Shown here: in pieces, positions 13,503-29,178 of the stretch
How the letters are laid out: every line of letters begins with the position of its first letter
Position numbering within the stretch: the first letter of the stretch is position 1
Origin: a virus
Virus record (IMG/VR): IMGVR_UViG_3300049927_000029
Coordinates: 1 to 53,993 of that record
DNA length: 53,993 bases
Reading direction: 5' to 3' (one strand)
Notes under the pieces: model-generated
Database searches by the model: none
What the model saw: only the letters and a program-made list of their open reading frames with translations
What the model was told of the DNA's origin: nothing
Program-made: the position numbers and the translations under genes

Positions 13503-13518
13503 CAGCTAGCGTAATAAG

Positions 13519-13543
13519 AAAAGCCCCTTGAGTGGGGCTTTTT
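13519..13543. terminator. Bidirectional rho-independent terminator
   Basis: AAAAGCCCC and GGGGCTTTTT form a 9-bp stem with A-run on one side and T-run on the other, between the convergent SSB gene and tailspike cassette. It would stop transcripts in both directions. Confidence 0.9.
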
Positions 13544-13554
13544 GTTGACCGCTG

Positions 13555-16203
13555 TTATTCAAAGGCTTCTGGAAAATCTATTTCCACTTGGCGCCGCATT
13601 AGCAAATGCCCAGTAGCGTTAGGGTGAACGCCGTCACCTACATAGTATGCGGAGTTGAAAACGGTTCCGTCAGGTCCGCCCAAAGCTGTCGCCATGTTAA
13701 TTATACGGTAACTGCCAAAATACCCTGATGTGATATCCAAGTTTTGGGCGGTTACCTGGGCTTGCCTAGCAGGGCGAGGAACTTGGGTGACAAGGATCGG
13801 AATGGCCGCCCTGGCCAACGCCCTGGCAATCAACGCCGCATAGTTTGTGCGGAACGCCGCTTGATCAACATCGTTCGTGCCCACAGCCAAGATCACATAA
13901 GTCGGTGAGAACGGGTCTAAGTCAGCCGCGCAGCAGTCCAGTGCATCCGTGGTAGTGTTGCCGCCCTTGGCCGAAAGCAGTAGATCACCTTTTGCCCTTT
14001 CAGCATCTACCAGATATGGCCAGCAGGACGCCCAAGAAGCGCCATTGTCCGAACCTTCCGAAATACTGTCACCGATGATCGTGATATACGGCGCCTGTTT
14101 GCACTGGGTGATCACGTCAATTTTGATGACCTCCACCGTACCCGACATGTGCATAAAGCCCGGCTTGCCATGCTGCGCGCCAGCATCAGGGGAGCCATCG
14201 CCCTGAGACTGCGTAATCGTAGTGGTTGCCTGCGTTACCGTATCGACCAGGGTGCATACGGTGCTTATGCCATCCTTTTTGGCGGTCAATACATAGTCAC
14301 GGCCTGCGACCAGTGCTGCCGCGAGCGCTACGGATTTCGAGAGCGTGACCGTGGAGCCGGTGAACAACGATAACGTGAGGGTTCCCGCAGCACCGTTGAC
14401 CATTAGGGTTGTGCCACGGGTGCCACGCGGCGGGCGCCACTGCAAGCCGAAGTTAGACGTGCTATCGGTAAACCGGATCCGCGCCCGCGTTACTTTGCGG
14501 CTGGCGATACTGGAATTGCCGTAGTAGGCCACCGCCGTTACCGCACCCGCCCCGGTCGATTTCAGGGCATTGGCGACAGTCCATACACCCCCTGCCAGGG
14601 TCCACAGGGTTGGCGTGACCGATCCCGGAAACGCTTCCGACAACACGGACAACTTGCCGCGCAGAGCATTGGACACTTGGGGCATCGATACCGGGTTCAA
14701 CGCGGCGATGGCTTGGGCGTTTGCAACCGAGTTGTTATAAGCCGATTTTGCCATCGTACTAGTGGACGTCAAGCTAGCTACCGTCTCAACTACAGCCCCA
14801 ATTTGAAGGACGTAGGCGTCTGCTACGGCTGCTACGGAGGCACCCAGCAAATCCCCAGCATAGATATAGCTCGAACCGGCTGCGGCGGTAACGCAGGCTG
14901 GGCGGGCAGTGATGCCGTAAAAGCCTAGCGCGTTTCCTGCCGCTACGTTCGTCAGCGGGTAATGCACGCCGCCAACAAACGTGTTCACCCCGACAACGCA
15001 CGTCACAGCGAATTCTTGCGATAGCCCGTAAACGCCCTCGGAGATGCGGTTCAGCAGCTTTATTTTCCCGGTGCCGGCTGTCATGGCATACACAGAGACC
15101 GACTTCATTTCCCCCGCTGCCGCGAACGTAGCCGCCGCGATACGTGTGCGCGAAGCGTTCTCGGTGGCTCCAGACGCTGGTGGTACGACGTTATAGGTGG
15201 CCTGAGTACCTGAGAGCTGGTTGGCCGACGCAATTAGCTGCGAATAGCTCAGGCCGACACCGACAACCGCCTGAATCTGCATGACGTTGACGGTCGACGT
15301 GACCACCTGGTTAGCGCCGGTAAGGTCACCCGGAAAAATCAAACTCGACGCCGCCGGACCGGTCGAGGTCAGCGATGTGCGCCCGACAAAGGTAGCCACC
15401 GCGATAGTGTCGTCAGTCGTGACATTGATACTGAAGAAATGGGTTCCCACGTTGAACACGTTTATGCCGACCGCCAGGGTCACTGCGAATTCGCTGATAA
15501 ACGAGTAAGACAGCGCCCCGGTTTTGCGAACGACCTTCACCTTAGCGGTGCCTGCCGTCTCCGCATAGACGGTGACCTGCTTCAAGTATCCAGCTTCTTT
15601 GAACAACGTACCCTCAATTCTGGTACGCGAGGTGTTTTCTGGTACGCCAGTCAATGCTGGAGCGGCCCTGAACTCTGCCGGATACTGCCCTGCGAGCTGA
15701 ATGCCAATTCCCTGCACAAGAGCCGTGCTTGGGGACCGGCCTATCTCCACCGCGACCCCTGCATCATTTCGATAGGCGATGGCTAGTGAGTCAGCTGTTG
15801 AGGGCACGGAGAAAAGGCGGTTCGTAGCGCCGGTGCCTGATGTATTGGCTAGACCATCGGCCGTCGTCAGAAAACCATGCGCTAAAGCTGCGGCAACAGA
15901 TGCCGAAAGCTCAGAAGAGATTGCCGAGTTCTGCGCCGCCTGAGCAGAGCCAAGTGCGGCGGATGCGGATGCGGCGGAGGCCGTAGACGACGAAACACTA
16001 ATATCCTTCGCGGCCTCAGATGTAGCGGCCTGCACAGCGGCCTCGCCCGCTGCTGCCTGAGAGTCTTCTAACAGTTGCTCGAGTTCCGGGGTTACGCCCC
16101 CCGTATTTCCGGTGTCGCCCTTGTCCCCTTTGTCGCCCTTGATAAAGGCAGCAACCTCCGCAGGAATTACCCCAGGCGTGCCGGGGATCAAATCGATATT
16201 CAT
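13555..16203 (-). CDS. Tailspike with collagen-like start and SGNH esterase (882 aa)
   Basis: Residues about 20-35 are collagen-like (GDKGDKGDTGNTGG); residues about 45-110 are Ala/Ser-rich and probably a trimeric coiled coil. Two tandem copies of a beta-sandwich domain follow (about 160-320 and 330-480, each with S/ASRTRI, VxVYAxTAGT and EFAVT landmarks). The C-terminal 200 residues are an SGNH hydrolase: GDSISEG (nucleophile Ser), the GTNDVD block and DGVHPNATGH (Asp/His). It would deacetylate or de-esterify a surface glycan of the host. Unlike the other tail proteins it lies antisense in the early region, with its own promoter and terminator. Confidence 0.85.
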   Translation of the reverse strand: MNIDLIPGTPGVIPAEVAAFIKGDKGDKGDTGNTGGVTPELEQLLEDSQAAAGEAAVQAATSEAAKDISVSSSTASAASASAALGSAQAAQNSAISSELSASVAAALAHGFLTTADGLANTSGTGATNRLFSVPSTADSLAIAYRNDAGVAVEIGRSPSTALVQGIGIQLAGQYPAEFRAAPALTGVPENTSRTRIEGTLFKEAGYLKQVTVYAETAGTAKVKVVRKTGALSYSFISEFAVTLAVGINVFNVGTHFFSINVTTDDTIAVATFVGRTSLTSTGPAASSLIFPGDLTGANQVVTSTVNVMQIQAVVGVGLSYSQLIASANQLSGTQATYNVVPPASGATENASRTRIAAATFAAAGEMKSVSVYAMTAGTGKIKLLNRISEGVYGLSQEFAVTCVVGVNTFVGGVHYPLTNVAAGNALGFYGITARPACVTAAAGSSYIYAGDLLGASVAAVADAYVLQIGAVVETVASLTSTSTMAKSAYNNSVANAQAIAALNPVSMPQVSNALRGKLSVLSEAFPGSVTPTLWTLAGGVWTVANALKSTGAGAVTAVAYYGNSSIASRKVTRARIRFTDSTSNFGLQWRPPRGTRGTTLMVNGAAGTLTLSLFTGSTVTLSKSVALAAALVAGRDYVLTAKKDGISTVCTLVDTVTQATTTITQSQGDGSPDAGAQHGKPGFMHMSGTVEVIKIDVITQCKQAPYITIIGDSISEGSDNGASWASCWPYLVDAERAKGDLLLSAKGGNTTTDALDCCAADLDPFSPTYVILAVGTNDVDQAAFRTNYAALIARALARAAIPILVTQVPRPARQAQVTAQNLDITSGYFGSYRIINMATALGGPDGTVFNSAYYVGDGVHPNATGHLLMRRQVEIDFPEAFE

Positions 16204-16511
16204 GGGCGCGTAACCTTTTCGACGATATTAAAAAGAAGAGTTGACGTAGGGATAACCGCGACTGGGTCTTCACGCCGCAGGCTAATATCGAACACGGCAG
16301 GGCCTATACGCCAAATGCTTGTATCTGCCACCTGGAGGGATAGCGACATCGTAGTCAAGGGGTCGACCCACTCAATAGGAACCTGGGCGATCAACCGACT
16401 AGCGAAATCTCGCAGCTGACACGTGGGAACGAACCCGACGAAGGTGCCCGGCTCCAGCCACTCGGGGAGGATAACCACGTAGTCGAAAGTAGCGCCGCGC
16501 TTATGTTCCAT
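16200..16511 (-). CDS. Small tailspike-associated protein (103 aa)
   Basis: A 103-residue beta-rich protein that overlaps the tailspike start by 4 nt. Short proteins of this kind (HKRGATFDYVVILPEW... SLSLQVADTSIWRIGPAVFDI) sit directly before receptor-binding proteins in several phages and prophages, where they are taken as adaptors or baseplate-upper-type components. It could link the SGNH tailspike to the virion. The function is inferred from pairing. Confidence 0.6.
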   Translation of the reverse strand: MEHKRGATFDYVVILPEWLEPGTFVGFVPTCQLRDFASRLIAQVPIEWVDPLTTMSLSLQVADTSIWRIGPAVFDISLRREDPVAVIPTSTLLFNIVEKVTRP

Positions 16512-16541
16512 GGGCTTTGTGCTCTATAGGTCTTGCGCGCG

Positions 16542-16571
16542 AGTATGCGGCTTTACGCTGTCAAGGGTCAA
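16542..16571 (-). promoter_or_regulatory. Promoter of the tailspike cassette
   Basis: On the leftward strand TTGACC (16566-16571), an 18-bp spacer and CATACT (16542-16547) lie 31 bp before the ATG at 16511. It gives the cassette independent expression against the surrounding early genes. Confidence 0.5.
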
Positions 16572-16599
16572 CCGTGCAGCTTTTGTGCGAGAGGCTAAA

Positions 16600-16615
16600 G
16601 GTTATCCTGATAACA
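16600..16615. promoter_or_regulatory. Palindrome copy 3 (GGTTATC-CT-GATAACA)
   Basis: Third copy of the palindrome, between the leftward tailspike promoter and rightward promoter P4, about 30 and 40 bp from them. A protein bound here could influence both. Confidence 0.5.
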
Positions 16616-16654
16616 GTTAATTTGGCTTTTTGTTGACCGTTCGTCGGTATACGC

Positions 16655-16683
16655 AAGACAATACAAGTAACACGTTGTACAGT
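16655..16683 (+). promoter_or_regulatory. Early promoter P4 with partial operator
   Basis: AAGACA (16655-16660), 17-bp spacer and TACAGT (16678-16683). The left half ATACAAG is intact, the right half is GTTGTAC (5 of 7 match). It restarts rightward early transcription after the antisense cassette. Confidence 0.6.
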
Positions 16684-16718
16684 TGGCGTATCGAAACCAA
16701 ACAGTAGGGAGAAGGGGA

Positions 16719-16925
16719 ATGTGCAAAGTATGCGACGGCACTGCTGATAATCGCGGCCACGTTTGGCAGCTTGGCGAAGACGGCAAGCCGGACTATTTCG
16801 CCTTCGAAGAGGGCGATCATAACGGGTATTGTTGCATCCGCTGCGGCTATATCTTCTGCCATCACTGCGAAGACGGTCCACAAGAAGATTGTACCTTCAT
16901 CGACCAAGAGGAGATGCCACTGTGA
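16719..16925 (+). CDS. Double zinc-knuckle microprotein (68 aa)
   Basis: ATG at 16719 with GGGAGAAGGGGA upstream. CKVC at residues 2-5, then CCIRCG and CHHC with acidic surroundings suggest two zinc sites. Acidic overall, so protein interaction is more likely than DNA binding. First gene after P4 and coupled by GTGA to the next. Confidence 0.6.
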   Translation: MCKVCDGTADNRGHVWQLGEDGKPDYFAFEEGDHNGYCCIRCGYIFCHHCEDGPQEDCTFIDQEEMPL

Positions 16926-17065
16926 AAAACCGTCGCCTTTACACCGGAATCCAGACAACCGATATGTCCGCCGGCTATGTCCGCCGCATTGAGCCTTTCG
17001 CTGTTACCGAGCAGTTCTACATGCTCGGCGACCATGGGTGCTACTGTCCAATTTTCTATCGTTGA
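16922..17065 (+). CDS. Small hypothetical protein (47 aa)
   Basis: GTG start overlapping the previous stop. Forty-seven residues with a basic start and a Cys pair near the end. No family recognised; support comes from coupling and frame. Confidence 0.45.
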   Translation: MKNRRLYTGIQTTDMSAGYVRRIEPFAVTEQFYMLGDHGCYCPIFYR

Positions 17066-17076
17066 GGACTTCAAGC

Positions 17077-17193
17077 ATGAATCTGACATTCAGCATACAG
17101 TGCTACAAGAAGCTCCGCGCCAAGGGGTACAAACCCGCCGCCGCGCTATACGCGGCTAGGTTCTACAAATCCCTTTATCCGTTCATCGTCTAG
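17077..17193 (+). CDS. Small basic amphipathic protein (38 aa)
   Basis: Thirty-eight codons with GAGG upstream. The peptide is basic and aromatic and looks like one amphipathic helix (YKPAAALYAARFYKSLYPF). Role unknown. Confidence 0.4.
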   Translation: MNLTFSIQCYKKLRAKGYKPAAALYAARFYKSLYPFIV

Positions 17194-17204
17194 GAGCAAC
17201 AAAA

Positions 17205-17351
17205 ATGACCTTCACCGTCAAGCAACAACATGGCCGCTACGACGTCATTGGCTACGGCATGATCCTCGATAGCTTCGACAGCGAGCAGGCGGCAGAGCAA
17301 GAAGCCTCTCGTATGAACGCGGAATACGAGCGCGTCCTGAGTTTCCTGTAA
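17205..17351 (+). CDS. Small hypothetical protein (48 aa)
   Basis: ATG at 17205 with TAGGAG upstream. A beta-hairpin-like start (FTVKQQHGRYDVIGYG) followed by an acidic helix. No family recognised. Confidence 0.5.
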   Translation: MTFTVKQQHGRYDVIGYGMILDSFDSEQAAEQEASRMNAEYERVLSFL

Positions 17352-17409
17352 GGCCCTTTCATACCCGAATAACAACAGCGCACATACGGTAATGCGCCAT
17401 GGAGTTCCA

Positions 17410-17562
17410 ATGACGGCGTTTGAACAAGGATACGAGGCCTTCCTGAAAGGCCTGCAGCGCGACGAGAATCCCTTTGACGAAGAGTCATGTTCGTTCTCTC
17501 GCCGCCGTTGGGTAGAGGGTTGGAACAAGGCATACCGCGCCAGGGAGGAAAAACAGACATGA
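17410..17562 (+). CDS. RMF/CrpP-fold small protein (50 aa)
   Basis: Fifty residues with the spacing G-Y-x-A-x3-G...N-P-F...R-R-W-V-E-G-W-x-K-A-Y that defines the ribosome modulation factor/CrpP group. RMF dimerises and silences 70S ribosomes; CrpP-type relatives occur widely on mobile elements of Pseudomonas. GGAG lies 7 nt before the ATG, and the stop overlaps the PhaZ-like gene. A ribosome-related role is suggested by family only. Confidence 0.6.
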   Translation: MTAFEQGYEAFLKGLQRDENPFDEESCSFSRRRWVEGWNKAYRAREEKQT

Positions 17563-18356
17563 TTATCCGCACCGTAGCCATCAACGGTCAGCAAATCAGA
17601 GTCGCTGAGCGCCTCGGTAGTCCATCCTTGCCGCCTTTGCTGATCTTCAACGGCATAGGGGCTAGCCTCGAACTGGTCCTACCCTTCGCTGATCGGCTAG
17701 ACCCGAAGCAGGGCTTCATCGCGTTCGACGTACCCGGCGTGGGAGGCTCGCCTACACCCTTCCTGCCGTACCGCTTCAGCTGCATCGCCAGATTGACCAC
17801 GAAGCTCCTGGACCTGCTAGGGCACGCCCGTGTAGACGTAATCGGGCTGAGCTGGGGCGGCTTCTTAGCGCAGCAGTTTGCTTACGACCATCCCACGCGC
17901 TGTAGGCGTCTGATTTTGGCGGCTACGTCGTGCGGGGTTGCGATGGTCCCTCCGGCGCTCAGGGTACTGGCACTGATGGCTAGCCCGAAACGCTACACCG
18001 ATCCAGAATACGCGGCGACTATCGCGCCAGAGATTTATGGCGGGGCTTTCCGTACCAATAGGGATCTGTGCGTCTCGCATGCCGCAAAAATGCAATCCTC
18101 CGGGGGGTTGGGGTATTACTACCAAGGAGCAGCCGTGTACTGGTGGACCTCCTTACATTGGCTGCACCGGATTGCACAGCGAACTCTAGTCCTCGGAGGT
18201 AATGACGACCCTCTGATTCCGTTAGTGAATACCCGACTGCTAGCCTCTCGGATTCCGAACGCGGATCTGCACATCGTAGACGACGGTCACCTGTTCCTGC
18301 TGACTCAGGCTGACGTAGTTACCCCCTTGATCTCACAGTTCCTGAGACGGCACTGA
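17559..18356 (+). CDS. phaZ: PhaZ-like polyhydroxyalkanoate depolymerase (265 aa)
   Basis: An alpha/beta hydrolase that follows the intracellular medium-chain PHA depolymerase of Pseudomonas along its whole length: LLIFNGIGASLELV, IAFDVPGVGGSPTP, the nucleophile elbow GLSWGG (Ser98), MASPKRY, APEIYGGAFR, LGGNDDPLIP (Asp near 216) and DDGHLFL (His244). It is about 20 residues shorter than the cellular enzyme, mainly at the ends. PhaZ hydrolyses stored PHA granules to 3-hydroxy fatty acids, so the phage may mobilise carbon and energy during infection. A lipase or lysis role is a less likely alternative. The gene is coupled to the RMF-like gene. Confidence 0.85.
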   Translation: MIIRTVAINGQQIRVAERLGSPSLPPLLIFNGIGASLELVLPFADRLDPKQGFIAFDVPGVGGSPTPFLPYRFSCIARLTTKLLDLLGHARVDVIGLSWGGFLAQQFAYDHPTRCRRLILAATSCGVAMVPPALRVLALMASPKRYTDPEYAATIAPEIYGGAFRTNRDLCVSHAAKMQSSGGLGYYYQGAAVYWWTSLHWLHRIAQRTLVLGGNDDPLIPLVNTRLLASRIPNADLHIVDDGHLFLLTQADVVTPLISQFLRRH

Positions 18357-18372
18357 TCCGAAGGAGAAGAAT

Positions 18373-18840
18373 ATGGCGGGCAAACGGCAGGTAGAAGCGC
18401 GGTGGGGGTTAGAGTTCTGGCAACTGGTGCGGGACTTTGCGGACCAGGGGCTACCACGGTGCGACGTAGCCAAAGCGCTCGGGTATACCCGAGACGGGTT
18501 TTACGCATTGTTGACAGCTAACCCTAGCCGCGACCCTTTCGAAGGCTCAAACATCGTCGCAGCCTACATCCGAGACTCCGGCGAAGGGTTCCGGGAGGCC
18601 TTGGAGCGTATGAGGGACGAAGGCAGGTCATGGGAATATGCCGCAAAGGCGATCGGGTATTGCGACGGTTCAAGGCTGAAGCGGGCCGCGCAAATGCGGG
18701 GGGTGATGATCGAGCTGCGAGGTAAACCGGGAAGGCCGCGAAGCACCGTATCCCGAAAACCAACCGTGTCGAATTTCACCACTAAATGGCCGAGCTGGAA
18801 CAAAGTTTACGCAATGGGGAAATCCAGTGGATCTAAGTAA
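18373..18840 (+). CDS. Duplicated-HTH DNA-binding protein (155 aa)
   Basis: Two segments look like helix-turn-helix motifs: residues about 25-45 (LPRCDVAKALGYTRDGFYAL) and about 80-100 (SWEYAAKAIGYCDGSRLKRA). A basic tail follows (KPGRPRSTVSRKP). Such proteins often sit beside phage replication genes. The ATG has AAGGAGAAG upstream; the end overlaps the polymerase exonuclease gene by 14 nt in another frame. Confidence 0.65.
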   Translation: MAGKRQVEARWGLEFWQLVRDFADQGLPRCDVAKALGYTRDGFYALLTANPSRDPFEGSNIVAAYIRDSGEGFREALERMRDEGRSWEYAAKAIGYCDGSRLKRAAQMRGVMIELRGKPGRPRSTVSRKPTVSNFTTKWPSWNKVYAMGKSSGSK

Positions 18841-19900
18841 ATGCATTTTCCTCGACACGGAAACGTTCTGCGAAACGCCCATCGGCAATGGTACGCACCG
18901 TTATGCAGAAGGCGCCGAGATCATCATGTGGCAGTGGGCGGTCGGCGATGGGCCTGTAGAGATTCGCGATGGGGATGAAGACATCAGCGACTTGCTGGAA
19001 CTCTTAGAGGATGAAAGTTATGAAGTGGTTATCCACAATTCGGCGTTTGATCGGAATGTCATCAGACACGCCACCGGAATCGGTATCCCCGTCGAGCGAG
19101 TCTTCGACACCATGGTCTGCGCTATGGCCCACTCTCTCCCCGGGAGCCTTTCTACTGTTGGAACCATCCTTGGCGTTGCCCAAGACAAAGCGAAGGATAA
19201 AGAAGGCCGCGCATGGATTGCGCTATTTTGCAAGCCTCAACCGAAGGGGCGGAAGATTCGTCGTGCGACGCGGAGTACACACCCGATAGAGTGGCAACGC
19301 TTCCGCGACTATGGCGGCCTTGACATCGAGGCGATGCGCGAGATCTACAAAAAGCTGCCACGCTGGAACTACCGCGGCGCTGAACGCGAACTGTGGCATC
19401 TCGACCAGAAGATCAACGAACGCGGCGTGCTGATGGACCTGGATCTGGCACATGCCGCAATCCGCGCTTCAGATCGCGCTCAGAAGATCCACGCGGCTGA
19501 TGCAGTGCGTTTGACCGATGGCGCCGTGACCAGCGCCAACCAGCGCGACAAGATGCTGGAGCACATCCTGGAGGCTTACGGCGTCGGGCTCCCCGATTTG
19601 CAGATCAGCACTTTGGAGCGTCGCATTGACGATCCGGATTTGCCGGTTGAGTTACGCGAACTACTGGCCGTCCGGCTGCAGGCCTCTAAAACGTCTGTCA
19701 GCAAGTACAAACGTGCGATCAGCGGTACGAGTAGTGACGGACGCATGCGCGGCACAGCGGCGTTCTGCGGGGCCATCCGCACGGGCAGGTGGGCGGGCCG
19801 GCTACTTCAGCTGCAGAACCTGCCGAGACCTTCTATCAAGAACAAAGAGATCGATCTGTGGATCGAGGCGCTCAAAAATGACGCGGAAGACCTCGTATGA
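18827..19900 (+). CDS. DNA polymerase family A, part 1: 3'-5' exonuclease and thumb region (357 aa)
   Basis: GTG start at 18827 with GGGGA upstream. Exo I FLDTET (about 8-13), Exo II HNSAFDRNV (about 70) and Exo III YGGLDIEAM mark a DnaQ-type proofreading domain in residues 1-185. Residues 185-357 are the thumb and entry to the palm, ending at RTGRWAGRLLQLQNLPRP and EDLV. In intact phage polymerases this runs on into motif A; here the chain stops and a methyltransferase gene intervenes before the palm resumes at 20613. The two parts presumably assemble, or this fragment works alone as a nuclease. Confidence 0.85.
   Translation: MDLSKCIFLDTETFCETPIGNGTHRYAEGAEIIMWQWAVGDGPVEIRDGDEDISDLLELLEDESYEVVIHNSAFDRNVIRHATGIGIPVERVFDTMVCAMAHSLPGSLSTVGTILGVAQDKAKDKEGRAWIALFCKPQPKGRKIRRATRSTHPIEWQRFRDYGGLDIEAMREIYKKLPRWNYRGAERELWHLDQKINERGVLMDLDLAHAAIRASDRAQKIHAADAVRLTDGAVTSANQRDKMLEHILEAYGVGLPDLQISTLERRIDDPDLPVELRELLAVRLQASKTSVSKYKRAISGTSSDGRMRGTAAFCGAIRTGRWAGRLLQLQNLPRPSIKNKEIDLWIEALKNDAEDLV
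19888..19900 (+). repeat. 13-bp direct repeat, left copy
   Basis: AGACCTCGTATGA, identical to 20604-20616. It contains the end of the first polymerase ORF and the ATG of the methyltransferase; the preceding GGA completes a Shine-Dalgarno. The pair brackets the methyltransferase gene exactly. Confidence 0.8.
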
Positions 19901-20616
19901 ATTTGATGAAAGGCGATTGCCTGGAAATGATGAAGCTTATTCCGGAGGGCTCTGTGGAAATGGTGCTTTGTGATTTGCCTTACGGTACGACGCAGAACAA
20001 GTGGGACGCAGTTATCCCATTCGACCAGCTTTGGGCGGAATACCGGCGGATTTGCAAAGGCGCGATTGTCTTGACCGCTGCGCAACCTTTCACATCCGCG
20101 CTAGTTATGAGCAACCCTGGACTATTCAAGTACCAATGGGTTTGGGAAAAGAGCGTGGCAACAAACTTCTTGAACGCCAAGAAACAACCGCTGCGCAATC
20201 ACGAAGACGTACTGGTTTTTTATGCTGAGCAGCCTACCTATAACCCTCAAATGGTGCCAGGGGAACGAAAGACATCTAGACGGGTAGGTACGAAGACAAG
20301 CAACTACGGCAAAGCCGATAAGGAAACTTTTTACGATTCGACCGAGCGCTACCCTCTTAGTGTCCAGCGTTTCGGCTCCAGAATTGACGGTGCAGCACTG
20401 CACCCCACCCAAAAGCCTGTCGCGCTAATGGAATACCTGATCCGTACCTACACGAACGAAGGCGACACCGTTCTCGATAACACCATGGGCAGCGGCACCA
20501 CCGGCGTTGCGTGCGTAAACGCAGGCCGGAAATTCATCGGCATTGAGCGCGATGATAAATACTTTGCCATCGCGCAGAAACGTATCGAAGACGCGATGTA
20601 TGGAGACCTCGTATGA
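19897..20616 (+). CDS. DNA (adenine or N4-cytosine) methyltransferase, class beta (239 aa)
   Basis: Motif IV DLPYG (about residues 27-31) precedes the SAM-binding DNTMGSGTTGVACVNAGR (about 192-209), the permuted order of beta-class amino-methyltransferases; HPTQKP before it is also typical. It would methylate adenine N6 (or cytosine N4) at an unknown site and protect phage DNA from restriction or mark it for regulation. No restriction partner is adjacent. The gene is inserted between two halves of the polymerase and overlaps each by 4 nt, with the 13-bp repeat at both ends. Confidence 0.85.
   Translation: MNLMKGDCLEMMKLIPEGSVEMVLCDLPYGTTQNKWDAVIPFDQLWAEYRRICKGAIVLTAAQPFTSALVMSNPGLFKYQWVWEKSVATNFLNAKKQPLRNHEDVLVFYAEQPTYNPQMVPGERKTSRRVGTKTSNYGKADKETFYDSTERYPLSVQRFGSRIDGAALHPTQKPVALMEYLIRTYTNEGDTVLDNTMGSGTTGVACVNAGRKFIGIERDDKYFAIAQKRIEDAMYGDLV
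20604..20616 (+). repeat. 13-bp direct repeat, right copy
   Basis: AGACCTCGTATGA, the second copy, containing the methyltransferase stop and the ATG of the polymerase palm ORF. Confidence 0.8.
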
Positions 20617-22460
20617 CGACGGTGATGGAAGCATGCAGCAGTGCGATACGCGGCCTTATAATCGCACCGCCTAAAAAGAAACTGGCTATCGCGGATTTGT
20701 CAAACGTAGAAGGCAGAGTGCTCGCTTGGCTGGCCGGTGAAGCATGGAAGCTCCAGGCGTTCCGTGAGTACGATACGCAGCTCGGATTAGACGGCGTTTG
20801 GTATACAGGCGAAGAGATCAACGCAGAGGCATTGCGAGGGTCACCAATCCCTGTCGAGCTGAACGCTAAAGGCGATCCAGTAACGCTCGGCCACGACCTT
20901 TACAAACTAGCCTACGCCAAGGCTTTCGGCATTGACGCGGCAGATGTCGACGGGTTCATGCGGCAGATCGGCAAGACCATGGAACTCGCTCTCGGGTTCG
21001 GCGGAGGGTGTGGCGCGTTCATTACCTTCTCGCTCGCATTCAACATCGACCTGGAAGCAATGGCGGAGAAGGCTTACGACAACATCCCAAAAAGCACCAT
21101 GGCTGAAGCCGAAAGCTTCCTCGAATGGCAGCTCGGTCAGGGCAAAAGCCAGTTTGGTTTGAGTGATCGCGCGTACACAGTCTGCGAATCCTTTAAACGC
21201 CTGTGGCGCGAATCCCACCCTGCGATCAGCAGCTACTGGAAGGATCTTGAAGAAACAATCCGTCGCGCGATCAACAACCCCGGACAGACATTGACCTGTC
21301 GAATGCATAAGGTTCGTCGGGACGGCGCTTGGCTTCGAGTCATGTTGCCGTCAGGTCGCTACCTCTGCTATCCATCCCCACGCGTAGAGGACGACGGGCA
21401 GATTACTTATATGGGCATTAACCAGTACAGCCGTAAGTGGGAACGCTTGCGCAGCTATGGTGGAAAATTCGTTGAAAACTGCATCGCCGAGGGGACCGAA
21501 GTTCTTACCGAGAAATTCGGATGGCGGGCTATAGAACGTGTGACACCTGATACCAGAGTGTGGGACGGCGACGAATGGGTATCCTTCTCCCATTGTCATT
21601 ACAGCGGTAAACAAACTACTATTCCAACCTACGGCGTTCACATGACGCCTGATCACTTGGTTTTGACCGAAGAGGGTTGGAAGAATGCATCATCGTGCGG
21701 TGGATATAACCGGGCTGCGTGTCGGTTACCTGACGGCTATCAGATACCAGGGTTCGACCGGAAAGAAATCGATGTGGGAAGTGGCGTGCGATTGCGGGAA
21801 AGTCATTCTGATGGACCCTTCCCAGTTGAAGAAGCACGCAAAGAGAGGAGTTCGGTGCTCATGTGGCTGCATGCGCAAAGCTACCCAATCCGAGAGGAGA
21901 ACACGCCACGGCATGAGTCAGCACCCCGCTTTCGCGGTTTGGCGCGCAATGATCGATCGATGCAGGCTACCGACGCATCATGCTTACAAAAACTATGGCG
22001 GTCGGGGAATAACGGTCTGCGACAGATGGCAGGAGTTATTCGAAAACTTCTGGGAAGACATGGGCGAGAAGTACAAACCGGGGCTGACATTGGAGCGCTT
22101 GGACAACTCGTTAGGCTATTCCAAGGAGAACTGCGACTGGCGTACCCGAAAGCACCAAGCGAACAACACTCGGCGCAACCACTGGTTAGAAACGCCACAC
22201 GGCCGGATGACGCTGATGGAAGCTTCCGAGTTCTACGGAGTGGGCTACACGACTTTGATGTACCGCCTGGATCACGAGTGGCCGATAGAACAAGCGCTGA
22301 TACCCGTAGGGTCTTCGACCTTGTTGATTGCGGACCACGCTCTCGGTTTGTTGTGAGAGGCACCGACGGCTTGCCGCTGATCGTCCACAACTGCACGCAG
22401 GCAGCCGCCCGCGATGTCATTGGGCGATCAATGCCGAGGATTGAAGCATGGAGACCGTAA
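20613..22460 (+). CDS. DNA polymerase family A, part 2: palm/fingers with intein (615 aa precursor)
   Basis: Motif [14 protein letters not shown] (about residue 30) supplies the first catalytic Asp, and motif [19 protein letters not shown] (about 113-130) the O-helix. Residues 1-289 and 594-615 are polymerase, with the intein at 290-593. The host sequence is cut at [12 protein letters not shown], a highly conserved palm site. After splicing the chain would end at MPRIEAWRP, before motif C, which lies on the next ORF in the -1 frame. The start overlaps the methyltransferase stop (ATGA) with GGAGA upstream. Activity needs assembly with the fragments at 18827 and 22448. Confidence 0.85.
21480..22391 (+). 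mobile_element. Polymerase intein (304 aa) with splicing ends and dual-coding middle
   Basis: In the polymerase frame the intein starts with Cys1 in [15 protein letters not shown] (block A) and has block [14 protein letters not shown]. It closes with block [18 protein letters not shown] and block G LIVHN, followed by Cys+1. All residues expected for a class 1 Cys-type intein are present. Only about 70 N-terminal and 35 C-terminal residues look like splicing domain. The roughly 200 residues between have no motif in this frame and are the shadow of an endonuclease gene read in the +1 frame (21685-22356). Confidence 0.9.
21685..22356 (+). CDS. Out-of-frame homing endonuclease nested in the polymerase intein (223 aa)
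   Basis: Complete gene in the +1 frame of the intein. The ATG at 21685 has AGAGGG at 8 nt and the TGA ends at 22356, before the intein's own end. A zinc ribbon (CDCG...CSCGC, residues 35-60) is followed by the widespread phage endonuclease core: [34 protein letters not shown] and [21 protein letters not shown]-terminal HTH-like segment ([20 protein letters not shown]) probably reads the target. It would cut intein-less polymerase genes and drive homing. Related to the helicase-intein enzyme at 24784. Family members are often labelled AP2/HNH. Confidence 0.9.
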   Translation: MHHRAVDITGLRVGYLTAIRYQGSTGKKSMWEVACDCGKVILMDPSQLKKHAKRGVRCSCGCMRKATQSERRTRHGMSQHPAFAVWRAMIDRCRLPTHHAYKNYGGRGITVCDRWQELFENFWEDMGEKYKPGLTLERLDNSLGYSKENCDWRTRKHQANNTRRNHWLETPHGRMTLMEASEFYGVGYTTLMYRLDHEWPIEQALIPVGSSTLLIADHALGLL

Positions 22461-22645
22461 AGCAGTTCGACCAGGGTTTCGAGATTGTCGTAACGGTACA
22501 CGACGAAATCATTTGTGAGGCGCCAGACGATCCAGCCTTTAGCGATGGGGTTTTAGCCGCCCTCATGGCCCAAGGCGAAGATTGGACAGAAGGCTTACCG
22601 CTCGCCGCAGCCGGCTTCGAAGCGTATCGCTACCGGAAAGGTTGA
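22448..22645 (+). CDS. DNA polymerase family A, part 3: motif C segment (65 aa)
   Basis: A 65-residue ORF in the -1 frame relative to part 2 and overlapping it by 13 nt. It carries motif [13 protein letters not shown] with the second catalytic Asp, and the usual polymerase C-terminus [21 protein letters not shown] stands 7 nt before its ATG, so reinitiation after the upstream stop is plausible. The first nine residues (METVKQFDQ) have no counterpart in the normal link between MPxIEA and GYEIV. A programmed -1 shift is unlikely because no slippery heptamer is visible. Without this piece the polymerase cannot work. Confidence 0.8.
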
Positions 22646-22667
22646 CGGCGAGTTCTATCTAGGAATA

Positions 22668-22695
22668 CTATCTAGATTCTACGGTTTCTAGATAG
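22668..22695. repeat. 9-bp inverted repeat between polymerase and HNH cassette
   Basis: CTATCTAGA (22668-22676) and TCTAGATAG (22687-22695) form a perfect stem with a 10-nt loop, preceded by a direct copy of CTATCTAG at 22655. It lies in the 60-nt gap between the polymerase end and the zinc-ribbon/HNH pair; AT-rich compared with neighbours. It may be a terminator-like hairpin or a boundary of the mobile cassette. Confidence 0.6.
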
Positions 22696-22705
22696 GTTAA
22701 ATGCG

Positions 22706-22864
22706 ATGCGCGAACAAGTATATTTCGGTCGGCTTTGTCCGAAGCACCCTGAGCTTAAGGGTGAACGCTGGATCAAGTCATACCGCTGCGTTGAATGCCT
22801 GCGGATCTACGCGAAGAAATACCGCGATGCGAAAAAGGAGATCAAAAATGGCGCCGACGCTTAA
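22706..22864 (+). CDS. Zinc-ribbon microprotein beside HNH gene (52 aa)
   Basis: Starts at 22706 and overlaps the HNH gene by 17 nt in another frame. Residues CPKH (11-14) and CVEC (28-31) form a zinc finger, followed by a Lys/Arg helix. This resembles small proteins that precede HNH nucleases in phage mobile cassettes. Probably nucleic-acid binding. Confidence 0.55.
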   Translation: MREQVYFGRLCPKHPELKGERWIKSYRCVECLRIYAKKYRDAKKEIKNGADA

Positions 22865-23384
22865 GGGTTTCACTCGCGAGTATTTGGCGTCGCTGTTCTC
22901 CTACGATCCGGAGACCGGGCGGATTACCCGTTTAGTCACTGCGGGGCCCATAGGTCGATACGGCAAAATACTTGAGTCTCCACATAACGCCGGGTACACC
23001 CAGGTCGCGCACAAAGGTAAACGGATGCTACTGCATCGCTTGGCCTACTTCTTACATACCGGAGAAACCCCGCAGGAAATCGATCACATAAACCATGATC
23101 GGAAGAACAACCGCTCCGAGAATTTAAGGGCCGCAACAAGCTCCTTGAATAAATGCAACGCTCCTATTCGGGTGACGAATAGCTCAGGGTTCAAAGGCGT
23201 TTGGTATGACAAGAGCAGGAATCGCTATACGGCTCAGTTTCAGTACCAAGGGGTAAATCGCCGGTTAGGGAGATTCAAAACTGCTGAAGAGGCTGCGCGG
23301 GCGTATGACAGGGCCGCGGTGGAAGCAGTGGGCGAATTCGCATTGACCAACGCAAAAATGGGATTGCTTAAGGAGTGCGTGTGA
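22848..23384 (+). CDS. HNH homing endonuclease with AP2 domain (178 aa)
   Basis: The ATG at 22848 has AAAGGAG at 8 nt; the longer open frame to 22701 overlaps the zinc-ribbon gene and is rejected. The HNH core is LLHRLAYFLHTGETPQEIDH followed by INHDRKNNRSENLRAAT. The C-terminus is an AP2-type DNA-binding domain (GFKGVWYDKSRNRYTAQF, then KTAEEAARAYDRAA). Free-standing enzymes of this type move within phage genomes. It sits between polymerase and VRR-NUC genes and overlaps the latter by 1 nt, so it has been fitted into the operon without breaking it. Confidence 0.85.
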   Translation: MAPTLKGFTREYLASLFSYDPETGRITRLVTAGPIGRYGKILESPHNAGYTQVAHKGKRMLLHRLAYFLHTGETPQEIDHINHDRKNNRSENLRAATSSLNKCNAPIRVTNSSGFKGVWYDKSRNRYTAQFQYQGVNRRLGRFKTAEEAARAYDRAAVEAVGEFALTNAKMGLLKECV

Positions 23385-23719
23385 TGCTGGAAAGAGACAT
23401 TGAAGCGCACCTGGTGAAACGGTGTAAGGAGATCGGGGCGCTCGCGGATAAATTTACTTCTCCGAGCCGGCGTTCGGTCCCTGATCGGCTGATCACCTTT
23501 AACGGGCGCGTGCTGTTCGTTGAGCTGAAAGCTACCCGGAAGGAACCGACAGAGGCCCAATACAGAGATCACGACAGACGCAGGGAAGTAGGGGCGGAAG
23601 TTGTGTGGACGGACAGCAAGAAGGGATGTGATTCCTTGTTGCATTCTTTGCAACGCGGCGAAAAGGTGCCGGTCTTCTCAAACTGGCAAGTGCACGAGGA
23701 AATCCACCTTGGCGATTGA
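23384..23719 (+). CDS. VRR-NUC nuclease (111 aa)
   Basis: ATG at 23384 with AAGGAG upstream. PDRLITFNGRVLFVELKA gives the PD...(D/E)xK active site of the VRR-NUC family, and residues up to 80 (GAEVVWTDS) complete the fold. Small VRR-NUC proteins are typical companions of the SNF2-type helicase in phage replication clusters and probably act as structure-specific nucleases. The end overlaps the helicase start by 11 nt. Confidence 0.85.
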   Translation: MLERDIEAHLVKRCKEIGALADKFTSPSRRSVPDRLITFNGRVLFVELKATRKEPTEAQYRDHDRRREVGAEVVWTDSKKGCDSLLHSLQRGEKVPVFSNWQVHEEIHLGD

Positions 23720-26021
23720 ATACAAACCGCACGCCTATCAAGGGCTAATCATGTCCGCTATCCATGCGACCAGGCGTTTGGCCGTGTGGGCCGGAATGGG
23801 GCTCGGCAAGTCGGTCAGCACGGCCACGGCGCTGGAAGACCTTTCGCTTACTGAGGATGTCTATCCGGTCTTGATCGTCGCACCGTTGCGCGTAGCGCGT
23901 ACCACTTGGCCGCAGGAGTACCAGAAGTGGACCCACCTTAAGCATCGCCGTGTCGTGACGATCTGCGGCGCGCTCAAGGAACGTCAAGCGGCGCTACGCA
24001 TGAAGGCTGATGTCTACACGGTCAACTTCGAGCAGCTTGAATGGCTGGTCGAGCAGCTAGGCGACAAATGGCCGTTCCGCACAGTGGTAGTCGACGAAGC
24101 AACCAAGCTCAAGGGTTTCCGGCTGCGTCAAGGTACGCGACGCGCTAAAGCCCTGGCCCGAGTTGCACATACCAAGATCAAGCGCATCATTCTGCTGACC
24201 GGTACGCCGAGCCCTAACGGTCTCCAAGACCTTTGGGGGCAGATGTGGTTCGTTGATAAGGGTGATCGTCTCGGGCGCACCTACGACGCCTTTAAGCAAC
24301 GCTGGTTCCGCGCTTCGCATACCGGGTTTGGCGTAGAAGCCACAGATCAAGCGCAAGAGCAGATCCAAAAAGCGTTAGGTGACGTGTGTATCACGATTGA
24401 CGCCGCAGATTGGTTCGACCTAAAAGAGCCGATCGTGAACGTGATCCGCGTAGAGCTGCCCTCGGCCGCACGCGTCCTTTACAAGAACATGGAAAAGCAA
24501 ATGTTCATGGACCTTGAAGGGTCGCAGGTTGAGGCGTTGAATGCCGCCGCTAAGACGCAGAAGTGCATCGCGGAAGGTACTGAAATCCTGACCGACTCCG
24601 GCTGGAAACCGATTGAGCGATTCGCCCAAGGGGATCTGGTGTGGGATGGGGTCGAATGGGTAAGTGTCTACAAATTAGCTTGCCACGGCTATAAGTCTGT
24701 CGTAGATTGCTTCGGAGTCACCATGACGCCAGACCACAAGGTGCTGACCGTCGAAGGGTGGAAAACCGCCGAGGAGATAAACAATGACGGTACAGTTGAC
24801 AGGCAAAGTGTTCGGCTACCTGACAGTGCTGGGGCGCTCGGGGTCCACGGACACCATAGCGCGGAGAGCGCTATGGGAAGCGCAATGCGTGTGCGGGAAG
24901 GTCATAACGTGCATCGGTACAAATCTGCGCAACCCCAACAGGGGAGAGAAGAAGTCTTGCGGGTGCAAGCGCCGGGAAATGCTCTTGGATGCTTGGGGTA
25001 CTCACGGCATGTCGAAGCACAGGGCTTTCCACACGTGGAGCAACATGAAATCCAGGTGCAGCAACCCAAACGACAAAGACTGGCCCAATTACGGCGGTCG
25101 GGGAATTTCGGTTTGCGAACGGTGGCGCGATTCGTTCGACGCTTTTTGGGAAGACATGGGCTCGACTTATTCGGACGATCTTACGATCGAGCGCAAGAAC
25201 AACAATGGCAATTATCAGGCAGACAACTGTCGATGGGCTACGGTTCGGGAGCAATCAAACAACACACGCTTCAACGTATGGCTGAATACTCCGGCGGGGC
25301 GTATGACGGTTGCGCAGGCGGCCAGGTTCTACGATATCAAGACTGTAACGCTTCGGGCCAGGTTGAAGAAAGGATGGCCGGTACTACGGGCGTTAGGCTT
25401 GTCTACGACCTTATCAACGCGGGTCCAAGACACCGCTTTACCGTTCGAGGAACAGACGGTAAGCCATTGATTGTCCACAATTGTTTACAAATTGCCAGCG
25501 GAGCGGCATATGTGGAAGGCGGACCGCAGTGGAAAAAGATTCATGACGAGAAGCTGAACGCATTGGAGGAAATCCTCGAAGAAGCTGCCGGCATGCCGGT
25601 GCTCGTGGCCTACAACTTTAAAAGCGATCTGGCGAGGCTCTTGGCGCGCTTCCCCCAAGGCCGACACCTGGACAAGAAGCCGGAGACGATCGACGCGTGG
25701 AACGCCGGAGAGATCCCGATCATGTTCGCCCACCCGGCCAGCGCTGGTCACGGTTTGAACCTGCAGGACGGGGGCAATATTCTGGTGTTCTTCAGCGTCA
25801 ACTGGAACTTGGAGGAGCATCAACAAATCATCGAGCGTAACGGGCCGGTGCGCCAACTGCAGGCTGGCCACAACCGCCCGGTGTTCCACCACTTCATCCT
25901 GGCCGCTGACACCGTGGACGAACTGGTATTGGAGCGCCTGCAGACCAAACGAGAGGTGCAGGAGATACTTCTAAAAGCGATGAGGGATAACGGATTTAAC
26001 CCTATAGAGGACGCGGCATGA
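23709..26021 (+). CDS. SNF2/DEAD-type helicase with intein (770 aa precursor)
   Basis: Start set at TTG 23709, with GAGGA at 8 nt and inside the VRR-NUC end; a start at 23601 would overlap that gene by over 100 nt. Motif I GMGLGKS (about residues 33-39), motif II VVDEATKLK, motif III LTGTPSPNGLQDLWG, and after the intein motif V SAGHGLNLQ and motif VI IIERNGPVRQLQAGH define a phage superfamily 2 helicase/translocase of about 464 residues once spliced. The intein occupies residues 286-591, at K-T-Q-K/C-L-Q-I in motif IV. Likely role: remodelling replication or recombination intermediates. Confidence 0.85.
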   Translation: MAIEYKPHAYQGLIMSAIHATRRLAVWAGMGLGKSVSTATALEDLSLTEDVYPVLIVAPLRVARTTWPQEYQKWTHLKHRRVVTICGALKERQAALRMKADVYTVNFEQLEWLVEQLGDKWPFRTVVVDEATKLKGFRLRQGTRRAKALARVAHTKIKRIILLTGTPSPNGLQDLWGQMWFVDKGDRLGRTYDAFKQRWFRASHTGFGVEATDQAQEQIQKALGDVCITIDAADWFDLKEPIVNVIRVELPSAARVLYKNMEKQMFMDLEGSQVEALNAAAKTQKCIAEGTEILTDSGWKPIERFAQGDLVWDGVEWVSVYKLACHGYKSVVDCFGVTMTPDHKVLTVEGWKTAEEINNDGTVDRQSVRLPDSAGALGVHGHHSAESAMGSAMRVREGHNVHRYKSAQPQQGREEVLRVQAPGNALGCLGYSRHVEAQGFPHVEQHEIQVQQPKRQRLAQLRRSGNFGLRTVARFVRRFLGRHGLDLFGRSYDRAQEQQWQLSGRQLSMGYGSGAIKQHTLQRMAEYSGGAYDGCAGGQVLRYQDCNASGQVEERMAGTTGVRLVYDLINAGPRHRFTVRGTDGKPLIVHNCLQIASGAAYVEGGPQWKKIHDEKLNALEEILEEAAGMPVLVAYNFKSDLARLLARFPQGRHLDKKPETIDAWNAGEIPIMFAHPASAGHGLNLQDGGNILVFFSVNWNLEEHQQIIERNGPVRQLQAGHNRPVFHHFILAADTVDELVLERLQTKREVQEILLKAMRDNGFNPIEDAA
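24564..25481 (+). mobile_element. Helicase intein (306 aa) with splicing ends and dual-coding middle
   Basis: Cys1 in CIAEGTEILTDSGWKP (block A), block B MTPDHKVLTVEGW, block F VYDLINAGPRHRFTVRG and block G LIVHN followed by Cys+1. The ends match those of the polymerase intein closely (shared CIAEGTE, MTPDH, VLT-EGWK, GTDG-PLIVHN), so the two are relatives in different host genes. The central 200 residues have no motif in this frame and are the shadow of the endonuclease gene read at +1. Confidence 0.9.
24784..25470 (+). CDS. Out-of-frame homing endonuclease nested in the helicase intein (228 aa)
   Basis: Complete gene in the +1 frame of the intein. GAGGAG (24771-24776) lies 7 nt before the ATG at 24784, and the TGA ends at 25470, 11 nt before the intein ends. 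Zinc ribbon CVCG...CGCKRR, core THGMSKHRAFHTW, WPNYGGRGISVCERW, FWEDMG, TIERKNNNGNYQADNCRWAT, and a C-terminal HTH-like segment (MTVAQAARFYDIKTVTLRAR). It has the same domain order as the enzyme in the polymerase intein. The canonical L-x-R-x-D-N reads T-I-E-R-K-N-N here, so one acidic position is changed, which may matter for cleavage. Confidence 0.9.
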   Translation: MTVQLTGKVFGYLTVLGRSGSTDTIARRALWEAQCVCGKVITCIGTNLRNPNRGEKKSCGCKRREMLLDAWGTHGMSKHRAFHTWSNMKSRCSNPNDKDWPNYGGRGISVCERWRDSFDAFWEDMGSTYSDDLTIERKNNNGNYQADNCRWATVREQSNNTRFNVWLNTPAGRMTVAQAARFYDIKTVTLRARLKKGWPVLRALGLSTTLSTRVQDTALPFEEQTVSH

Positions 26022-26419
26022 AGCTGAAAAAGGCGGAGCGCGAACAGGTTCGTATGAAGTACGGCGGGCGCTGCGCTTATTGCGGAGTGGTTCTATCCGA
26101 TCGGTGGCACGCCGACCATCTTGTGCCTGTACAAAGGGAATTGCTTTCAAAGCAAAACGCTAATGGTACTTGGCGTTTGGATTCCGGTAAGCCTCTAAAG
26201 CCGGAGAACGACACCGTAGAAAATATGATGCCGGCGTGCGCGCCATGCAACATCAGCAAAGGCGCTCAGACGTTAGAAGGGTGGCGTAACTGGATCGCCG
26301 GCCATGTGAACAGCCTGAACAGTTACCACCCAATCTACAGATTGGCGAAAGCATATGGGCTGATAACTGAAACCGCCGCGCCGGTAGTGTTCTACTTCGA
26401 AAAGGAAGACCTAGTATGA
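26018..26419 (+). CDS. HNH nuclease, McrA-like (133 aa)
   Basis: CAYC near residue 20 and ACAPC near 86 form the zinc pair; HADHLVPVQRE (about 33-43) and N-M-M-P-x-C...N-x-S-K carry the HNH residues. The protein is longer than the packaging HNH gene and belongs with replication genes, overlapping the helicase stop (ATGA). It may be a free-standing mobile nuclease or a repair enzyme. The end GGAAGACCTAGTATGA doubles as SD and overlapped start of the next gene. Confidence 0.8.
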   Translation: MKLKKAEREQVRMKYGGRCAYCGVVLSDRWHADHLVPVQRELLSKQNANGTWRLDSGKPLKPENDTVENMMPACAPCNISKGAQTLEGWRNWIAGHVNSLNSYHPIYRLAKAYGLITETAAPVVFYFEKEDLV

Positions 26420-26697
26420 CCCAACAGAAAACCGGCGGCAGCGTCGACTATTACAAATGCCACGTCGCTGATCCCATTTCCAAAGGCGAACCGTACACCG
26501 CCGAGAGCATCGACATTATCGAAGCGCTTGGTATGACCTTCGCGGAAGGTGAAGCGTTTAAAGCGATCTGGCGTACCTGCACTGGCCGCATGGGCGGCGC
26601 GGTAAAGGCGGACAACAAAGCGTTGTACAACGCTGAGAAAGTCGAATTCTTCGGCGCTCGCATGGTGCGGGCCGCGAAAAGGAGTGAAGCGAAATGA
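26416..26697 (+). CDS. Phage hypothetical, DUF3310-like pattern (93 aa)
   Basis: Ninety-three residues with SVDYYKCHVADP, then IDIIEALGMTFAEGEAFKAIWR. This is the arrangement of small phage proteins related to the SaV/DUF3310 type (DxIxA, F..G...K-x-I-W-R). These are thought to bind nucleotides or partner with nucleotide enzymes, but the function is not known. Coupled on both sides. Confidence 0.55.
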   Translation: MTQQKTGGSVDYYKCHVADPISKGEPYTAESIDIIEALGMTFAEGEAFKAIWRTCTGRMGGAVKADNKALYNAEKVEFFGARMVRAAKRSEAK

Positions 26698-26957
26698 CTG
26701 ATAAAATGCGTGAAGAGTTCGAAGCGGCTTATACCGAAATGCAGATTCGCGCGGGGATCAACTCCGTGAAAAGGCTGTTCGATACCCTAGAGGGTTCGTA
26801 CATCAGCAGTACAACGAAGGCCGCTTGGTGGGGCTGGCAAGCTTCCCGCGCAGTAATTCGCGTAGACCTGCCGCATCTGTTTCCGCTCTATCGCGAAGGC
26901 GTTACCGAAGCGCTGCTCGTCCACGGAATCAAGGTAAAGCAGTGGGGCGGCAAATGA
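26694..26957 (+). CDS. Small hypothetical protein (87 aa)
   Basis: Eighty-seven residues; a helical N-terminus, a TTKAAWWGWQASRA segment common in short phage proteins (the WxGWxAx pattern), and a basic end. Overlaps both neighbours by 4 nt. Function unknown. Confidence 0.55.
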   Translation: MTDKMREEFEAAYTEMQIRAGINSVKRLFDTLEGSYISSTTKAAWWGWQASRAVIRVDLPHLFPLYREGVTEALLVHGIKVKQWGGK

Positions 26958-27106
26958 AAATCCTAGCCATGCTTTACGTGATCGCTTTCCCCGGCGCTGC
27001 GCCCCAGCCAGTGGCCGCGTACTTCACGCAGGACGCCCAGGTTATCTGCCAGGCGACAGCCGCTGCGCAAAATGCAACTGAGGAAGAGGAGTATTACTGT
27101 GAGTGA
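26954..27106 (+). CDS. Small secreted or membrane peptide (50 aa)
   Basis: Fifty codons, ATGA-coupled. The N-terminus is hydrophobic and could be a signal peptide (MKILAMLYVIAFPGAAPQ), followed by a Cys-containing acidic tail. Role unknown. Confidence 0.45.
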   Translation: MKILAMLYVIAFPGAAPQPVAAYFTQDAQVICQATAAAQNATEEEEYYCE

Positions 27107-29138: not shown

Positions 29139-29178
29139 CGCTCAGTCCCTATGGGTCCGTTTATGATGGCATAGTGTA

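What the first reader, a model, noticed from the sequence alone, without database searches (positions are those of the whole stretch)
21480..22391. Polymerase intein whose homing endonuclease is encoded in a different reading frame
The polymerase frame has a full set of splicing residues (Cys1, TPDH, HN|C) and stays open across 304 codons. The endonuclease is not part of that chain: it is a complete gene in the +1 frame (21685-22356) with its own SD, ATG and stop. Normal inteins carry the endonuclease fused in frame or lack it. Here splicing and homing functions are uncoupled at protein level but locked together at DNA level, with about 220 codons dual-coding. Block F of the intein itself ([13 protein letters not shown]) is overlapped. 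I cannot tell whether this arrangement has been published.
Basis: partly seen in the sequence, partly recalled or inferred. Interest (0 to 1): 0.97.

Follow-up and report, generated by a model that had tools for sequence, protein, structure and literature searches.

The report
Inteins hiding an out-of-frame homing endonuclease
In this phage, and in dozens of unrelated phages and prophages, a self-splicing protein insert (intein) carries its presumed homing-endonuclease gene in a different reading frame of the same DNA, so one stretch encodes a spliced-out spacer in one frame and a separate DNA-binding, nuclease-like protein in the other.

Summary
The PolA intein (21480-22391, 304 codons, Cys1, TPDH, HN|Cys) contains a complete HNH-family ORF (21685-22356) in the +1 frame. 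It is not an indel artefact. I found 55 distinct intact inteins at PolA and SNF2-helicase sites with the same layout, all +1. Two further groups have the HNH in +1 (Streptococcus/Gardnerella phages) or +2 (Salmonella SETP3, Sodalis SO-1, Escherichia, Pseudomonas). The frame under purifying selection switches at the ORF boundaries (p=6e-10 for the closest pair). The intein frame is stop-free in 55/55, against 0.33 expected and 1/170 free-standing relatives. All 55 ORFs have ATG/GTG starts, mostly with strong Shine-Dalgarno sites. Dual amino-acid constraint is confined to about 25 codons at the start and 10-15 at the end; the middle is a stop-free shadow, predicted disordered. Intein-free alleles exist (APSE phages; helicase of L001). 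Closest published case: the ShiLan insertion (out-of-frame HNH, no splicing domain). A 2025 preprint on 'non-canonical' phage inteins could not be read. New variant of a known kind; nuclease and splicing activity untested.

The parts
20613..21479 (+). N-extein: PolA fingers/palm part of the phage DNA polymerase (polymerase ORF 20613-22460)
   Evidence: phrog_7766/17 DNA polymerase E 1e-34/2e-27
21480..22391 (+). Polymerase intein, 304 codons, open throughout; Cys1, TPDH block B, block F, HN|Cys
   Evidence: profile match to Mtu RecA mini-intein; AlphaFold Hint fold, Foldseek hits are inteins
21480..21737 (+). N-terminal Hint half (intein residues 1-86, pLDDT about 80-94 for most); residues 69-about 93 are dual-coded with the start of the HNH ORF
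21738..22292 (+). Linker in the intein frame (residues 87-271): predicted disordered, stop-free shadow of the HNH gene
22293..22391 (+). C-terminal Hint half (residues 272-304, blocks F and G); block F overlapped by the end of the HNH ORF
21672..21676 (+). Shine-Dalgarno-like GAGGG, 8 nt before the HNH ATG, inside the intein coding frame
   Evidence: dG -6.3 kcal/mol
21685..22356 (+). HNH-family ORF, 223 aa, +1 frame relative to the intein, own ATG and TGA
   Evidence: phrog_374 E 7.5e-57; codon-position test
22392..22460 (+). C-extein beginning with the +1 Cys; stops early in this record
24564..25481 (+). Second intein, in the SNF2/DEAD-type helicase (ORF 23601-26021), 306 codons, Cys1, TPDH, HN|Cys
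   Evidence: close relative L001 lacks it exactly
24771..24776 (+). Shine-Dalgarno GAGGAG before the helicase-intein HNH ORF
   Evidence: (dG -8.9)
24784..25470 (+). Second HNH-family ORF, 228 aa, +1 frame relative to the helicase intein
   Evidence: (phrog_374 E 4.8e-58)

Best explanation
This is a mobile intein whose homing endonuclease gene is nested out of frame. The polymerase ORF is translated through the whole element. The Hint domain folds from residues about 1-86 and 272-304, with the middle as a disordered loop, and splices itself out to restore the polymerase (splicing inferred from intact catalytic residues and fold). Ribosomes also start independently at the internal SD and ATG and make a free HNH protein in the +1 frame (supported by selection and start-site statistics, not by experiment). 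That protein presumably cuts intein-free alleles so that the whole 912-bp unit is copied in (inferred from intein-free alleles and sporadic distribution). Because both frames share the DNA, an indel in the endonuclease gene also breaks the polymerase ORF, so the selfish gene can be lost only by stops or missense confined to its own frame or by deletions of a multiple of three. Two HNH-reduced relatives are such deletions (423 and 507 bp).
For: Layout in 55 intact distinct inteins, all +1, all with Cys1, (H/S)N|Cys and no stops, at several PolA and SNF2-helicase sites. Selected-frame switch: window vs L001 mismatch by intein codon position is .05/.00/.38 in Hint-N and .37/.12/.11 in the HNH zone (Fisher p=6e-10); +2 group .05/0/.30 versus .08/.33/.15. 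Stop depletion 55/55 versus 0.33 expected; free-standing HNH 1/170. Starts: 55/55 ATG or GTG, median SD dG -7.0 versus -3.1 for controls, p=1e-17; Gardnerella phage AB1 has AAGGAGGT. Structures: intein model confident only in the Hint halves; HNH model mean pLDDT 87. Intein-free alleles: APSE-7 and L001 helicase KTQK|CLQ. HNH-truncated and HNH-less inteins with the intein frame kept. Finished isolate genomes: APSE-1, Caulobacter GB2A, SO-1, SETP3.
Against: No experiment shows splicing, translation of the +1 frame or cleavage. The first His of the HNH motif aligns with an invariant Arg (DRID/ERLD) in the only relevant PDB sequence match, I-HmuI, at E=0.048. Pfam has no HNH model that matches the protein, and fold searches of the HNH model were uninformative. 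The window's own polymerase C-extein is frameshifted.
Confidence: 0.9

Rival explanations
1. The endonuclease is made as an intein-N/HNH fusion by programmed +1 frameshifting (or +2, i.e. -1) rather than by internal initiation.
For: The HNH frame is open a few codons upstream of the start in many copies; some copies have CTG at the conserved MHH position.
Against: Every one of 55 has an ATG/GTG in the start zone, usually with a strong SD, and where the MHH codon is CTG an ATG lies about 5 codons upstream, usually with GAGGT before it. No shared slippery sequence was noticed, but none was searched for systematically.
Confidence: 0.06
2. The HNH ORF is translated and selected but is not an active homing endonuclease (DNA-binding regulator, nickase or decayed enzyme).
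For: Invariant Arg where I-HmuI has the first HNH His; no Pfam HNH match; C-terminal helix-turn-helix matches.
Against: PHROG families named HNH endonuclease match at up to E 1e-58; zinc-ribbon and GGRGI core strongly conserved; element present or absent at identical sites in closely related genes, as homing predicts.
Confidence: 0.12
3. A sequencing or assembly indel split a normal in-frame intein endonuclease.
For: The window is a metagenomic virus record and its polymerase C-extein does carry a frameshift.
Against: A single indel could not restore the intein frame at the far end; the same layout occurs in 55 intact sequences, including finished isolate genomes, with conserved start and stop.
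Confidence: 0.005
4. A group I intron with an intron-encoded HNH gene, as Sodalis phage SO-1 is annotated.
For: SO-1 gp38/gp39 annotation 'type I self-splicing intron'; HNH genes often ride in group I introns.
Against: No Rfam match in window 18500-26500 up to E 1, and no intron match in the relatives at the gathering threshold; continuous host frame with all splicing motifs and a Hint fold.
Confidence: 0.01

Closest known systems
[quoted passage not shown] 2025, PMC11855218)
   Same: In-frame insertion in a phage gene that stays open in the host frame and hides an HNH gene in another frame; sporadic distribution interpreted as homing.
   Different: The authors found no intein or intron splicing domain and no RBS; here there is a full Hint splicing domain in the host frame and a conserved SD plus start for the HNH.
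Canonical large inteins with in-frame homing endonuclease domains (PI-SceI, PI-MtuI)
   Same: Hint domain at the ends, endonuclease at the same insertion point, mobile at DNA level.
   Different: There the endonuclease is part of the spliced-out polypeptide; here it is a separate protein from another frame and the intein loop is a shadow peptide.
APSE-1 P45/P46 and Sodalis phage SO-1 gp38/gp39 GenBank annotations
   Same: Exactly this architecture, deposited as overlapping DNA polymerase and HNH genes.
   Different: The records do not describe it as an intein with a nested endonuclease (SO-1 is called a type I intron; an intein-free APSE-7 is called 'missing large internal portions').
Mobile group I introns with intron-encoded HNH endonucleases (e.g. 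I-HmuI)
   Same: The endonuclease is a free protein translated from its own start inside the splicing element.
   Different: The splicing element is RNA there; here it is a protein domain sharing the bases in another frame.
Gosselin, Arsenault and Gogarten 2025 preprint on actinobacteriophage inteins with 'non-canonical architecture' (doi 10.1101/2025.01.02.630785)
   Same: Title suggests unusual intein architectures; may include this one.
   Different: Could not be read here, so overlap is unknown.

Membership tests
Intein (Hint-domain protein splicing element) | In-frame insertion with Cys/Ser/Thr at position 1, block B TxxH, C-terminal (H)N and Cys/Ser/Thr +1 | tested here: met
   Cys1, TPDH, HN|Cys; 56 of 56 listed elements have Cys1, (H/S)N and Cys+1
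Intein (Hint-domain protein splicing element) | Hint fold | tested here: met
   residues 1-86 and 272-304 confident; top Foldseek hits are inteins
Intein (Hint-domain protein splicing element) | Removal restores the host protein | tested here: met
   the helicase exteins join to KTQKCLQIASG, the sequence of the intein-free relative L001. For the window polymerase the C-extein is frameshifted.
Intein (Hint-domain protein splicing element) | Splicing activity | not testable with these tools
   needs expression
HNH homing endonuclease | Sequence homology to HNH endonucleases | tested here: met
   PHROG HNH families up to E 1e-58; weak I-HmuI alignment (E 0.048)
HNH homing endonuclease | Catalytic H-N-H residues | tested here: inconclusive
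   invariant Asn149 and Asn161, but the first His aligns with invariant Arg138
HNH homing endonuclease | Presence/absence polymorphism at a fixed site in closely related genes | tested here: met
HNH homing endonuclease | Site-specific cleavage | not testable with these tools
   needs purified protein
Canonical intein-encoded endonuclease | Endonuclease fused in frame within the intein | tested here: not met
   all in +1; another group in +2; none in frame; none of 202 free-standing relatives lies in an in-frame intein
ShiLan-type insertion | No detectable splicing domain | tested here: not met
   full Hint domain present
Group I intron | Conserved catalytic RNA structure | tested here: not met
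   no Rfam intron match

The most novel reading that the evidence does not exclude
A widespread class of 'nested-frame' inteins in which the homing endonuclease gene was placed out of frame at least twice (+1 and +2), with selection favouring entanglement because indels that would kill the selfish endonuclease also kill an essential replication protein, slowing the decay phase of the homing cycle.
Probability: 0.5. Interest if true: 0.88.

Novelty: new variant of a known kind. Interest (0 to 1): 0.78.

Why it matters
It shows a way to pair protein splicing with DNA mobility without fusing the two proteins, and it recurs across phages and prophages of Proteobacteria, Firmicutes, Actinobacteria and others, so phage inteins of about 300 aa with no recognised endonuclease may hide one in another frame. 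It is a natural counterpart of engineered 'sequence entanglement' used to protect genes from mutational loss (PMC12455656), and it makes the question of what slows homing-gene decay testable in cultured phages (SETP3, Caulobacter RW). It also corrects annotations (overlapping HNH genes, 'introns', 'partial' polymerases).

Tried and rejected
Group I/II intron: no Rfam match. Indel artefact: rejected by conservation. Real dual-coding of the whole 220 codons: rejected; intein-frame similarity in the middle equals a synonymous-shuffle null. In-frame or otherwise nested copies among free-standing HNH relatives: none of 202; the only free HNH with that frame open (L077) is a stand-alone gene. Foldseek and VIA-align of the HNH model against PDB gave nothing useful. 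hhalign of A7 with the window's other HNH (22701-23384) found no match. Scans that failed: Hint-N alignment not conserved enough; SFCi1 HNH query in viral contigs found no relative. Alignment A3 was made with a wrong frame for L263 and not used. Literature: no held paper found describes an intein with an out-of-frame endonuclease, but bioRxiv and most subscription journals are not held.

Full report
WHAT IS THERE. In the window the polymerase ORF (20613-22460) contains an intein of 304 codons at 21480-22391. It starts with Cys, has block B TPDH, block [14 protein letters not shown] and ends HN|Cys. Within it, in the +1 frame, lies a complete ORF of 223 aa at 21685-22356 with an SD-like GAGGG eight bases before its ATG. 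The protein matches PHROG families of phage HNH endonucleases (phrog_374, E 7.5e-57).

NOT AN ARTEFACT. HNH relatives from virus and genome contigs and from phage records were scanned with profiles of the two Hint halves. Sixty-seven HNH matches lie between a Hint-N and a Hint-C of one continuous frame and are in +1. The only matches with other labels are fragments of a broken copy in Arsenophonus (L121) and two partial loci. After removing duplicates there are 56 elements, 55 with an intact HNH ORF; all have Cys1, a terminal Asn (His-Asn or, in five, Ser-Asn), Cys at +1 and no stop in the intein frame. They occupy PolA sites (..GGK..EN^C and ..GGKL^CEN) and SNF2-helicase sites. Carriers include finished isolate genomes (Hamiltonella phage APSE-1, Caulobacter phage GB2A, Shewanella phage SFCi1) and bacterial genome contigs of Alicyclobacillus, Paenibacillus and others.

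A SECOND FRAME. A different PolA site (motif B region) carries inteins with related HNH proteins. In Salmonella phage SETP3, Sodalis phage SO-1, Escherichia phage Pubbukkers and Pseudomonas phage MR14 the HNH is in the +2 frame; in Streptococcus Javan phages and Gardnerella phage AB1 it is +1. The proteins are homologous to the window's (hhalign E 4.5e-16 and 3.7e-13). Out-of-frame nesting therefore arose, or changed frame, more than once (inference).

BOTH FRAMES ARE REAL. (a) Selection follows the HNH frame inside its ORF. Between the window and its nearest relative L001, mismatches by intein codon position are .05/.00/.38 in Hint-N.37/.12/.11 in the HNH zone and .08/.00/.25 in Hint-C (Fisher test on positions 1 and 3, p=6e-10). 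The pattern holds at all divergence levels, in the Javan group and, shifted to position 2 as expected for +2, in the SETP3 group. (b) The intein frame is kept open: 55 of 55 with no stop, against 0.33 expected when HNH codons are shuffled synonymously; 1 of 170 free-standing relatives is open in that frame. (c) All 55 have an ATG or GTG in the start zone, with median anti-SD pairing of -7.0 kcal/mol against -3.1 at control codons (p=1e-17); Gardnerella phage AB1 has AAGGAGGT.

HOW MUCH IS TRULY DUAL-CODING. Intein-frame amino-acid similarity exceeds what the HNH protein alone would give mainly at HNH residues about 2-26 and in the last 10-15 residues (z about 20 at the two extremes), with a small rise near 182-196; the rest is close to the null. 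This fits the predicted structure: intein residues 1-86 and 272-304 form a confident Hint domain and 87-271 are disordered. Its matches in PDB are inteins, and the Mtu RecA mini-intein aligns through the dual-coded strand. The HNH product itself is confidently modelled (mean pLDDT 87), but no PDB fold match was informative.

MOBILITY. APSE phages are polymorphic: APSE-1/2 have the intein, an APSE-7 record (LR794146) does not, with 93-99% identical flanks and the junction GGK-II-EN versus GGK-S^C...N^C-EN. L001 has the polymerase intein but its helicase is intein-free, reading KTQKCLQIASG exactly where the window reads KTQK^C...HN^CLQIASG. In the Javan site, Javan422 and a Ruminococcus phage have lost most or all of the HNH by deletions of 423 and 507 bases, both multiples of three that keep the intein frame.

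MECHANISM. Shown by computation: layout, conservation, selection in both frames, start-site statistics, Hint fold prediction, presence/absence polymorphism. Inferred: protein splicing, translation of a free HNH protein by internal initiation, and homing by cleavage of intein-free alleles. Weak point: the residue aligned with the first catalytic His of I-HmuI is an invariant Arg, and that alignment is itself weak (E 0.048), so catalytic activity must be tested.

KNOWN OR NEW. The nearest description found is the ShiLan insertion (PMC11855218): an out-of-frame HNH in a methylase insertion for which no splicing domain or RBS could be found. APSE-1 P45/P46 and SO-1 gp38/gp39 show that the overlap has sat in GenBank unrecognised. 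A 2025 preprint on actinobacteriophage inteins with 'non-canonical architecture' is cited there but was not readable; it may have priority for part of this. I classify it as a new variant of a known kind.

CAVEATS. The window's polymerase C-extein carries 23 extra bases relative to L001 and is out of frame after 22 codons, so this particular polymerase may be broken, split or mis-sequenced; this does not touch the intein itself. HNH-based searching favours this HNH family, so the share of all inteins with nested endonucleases is unknown. The close-pair statistics in the +2 group rest on few pairs. That entanglement itself is favoured by selection is a hypothesis, not a result.

Noticed in passing
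window 18827-19900, 19897-20616, 20613-22460: The PolA gene is split into an exonuclease part and a polymerase part by an N6/N4 DNA methylase gene with ATGA overlaps on both sides; both junctions read GACCTCGTATGA. The relative L001 has the same split with a different gene in the slot.
   Followed up: partly
window 22392-22645: The polymerase C-extein has 23 extra bases relative to L001; it stops at 22460 while motif C (VHDE) lies in another frame (ORF 22448-22645, own ATG).
   Followed up: partly
L005 861-1784 and 2181-3086: One polymerase gene with two inteins, each carrying a +1 HNH ORF of a different subfamily.
   Followed up: partly
L121 (Arsenophonus endosymbiont of Aleurodicus floccissimus): A decaying copy: HNH ORF broken while the intein frame is still open, but the polymerase C-extein has a stop.
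   Followed up: partly
L261 (APSE-7, LR794146): An intein-free polymerase annotated as 'missing large internal portions', i.e. the annotators did not recognise the intein in its relatives.
   Followed up: yes
window 22701-23384: Free-standing HNH_3 plus AP2-domain gene between the polymerase and a small gene at 23375-23719.
   Followed up: no
window about 16109-16141: 33-base exact match to a tail gene of Gordonia phage Suzy, the only megablast hit of window 10001-30000 against phage records.
   Followed up: no
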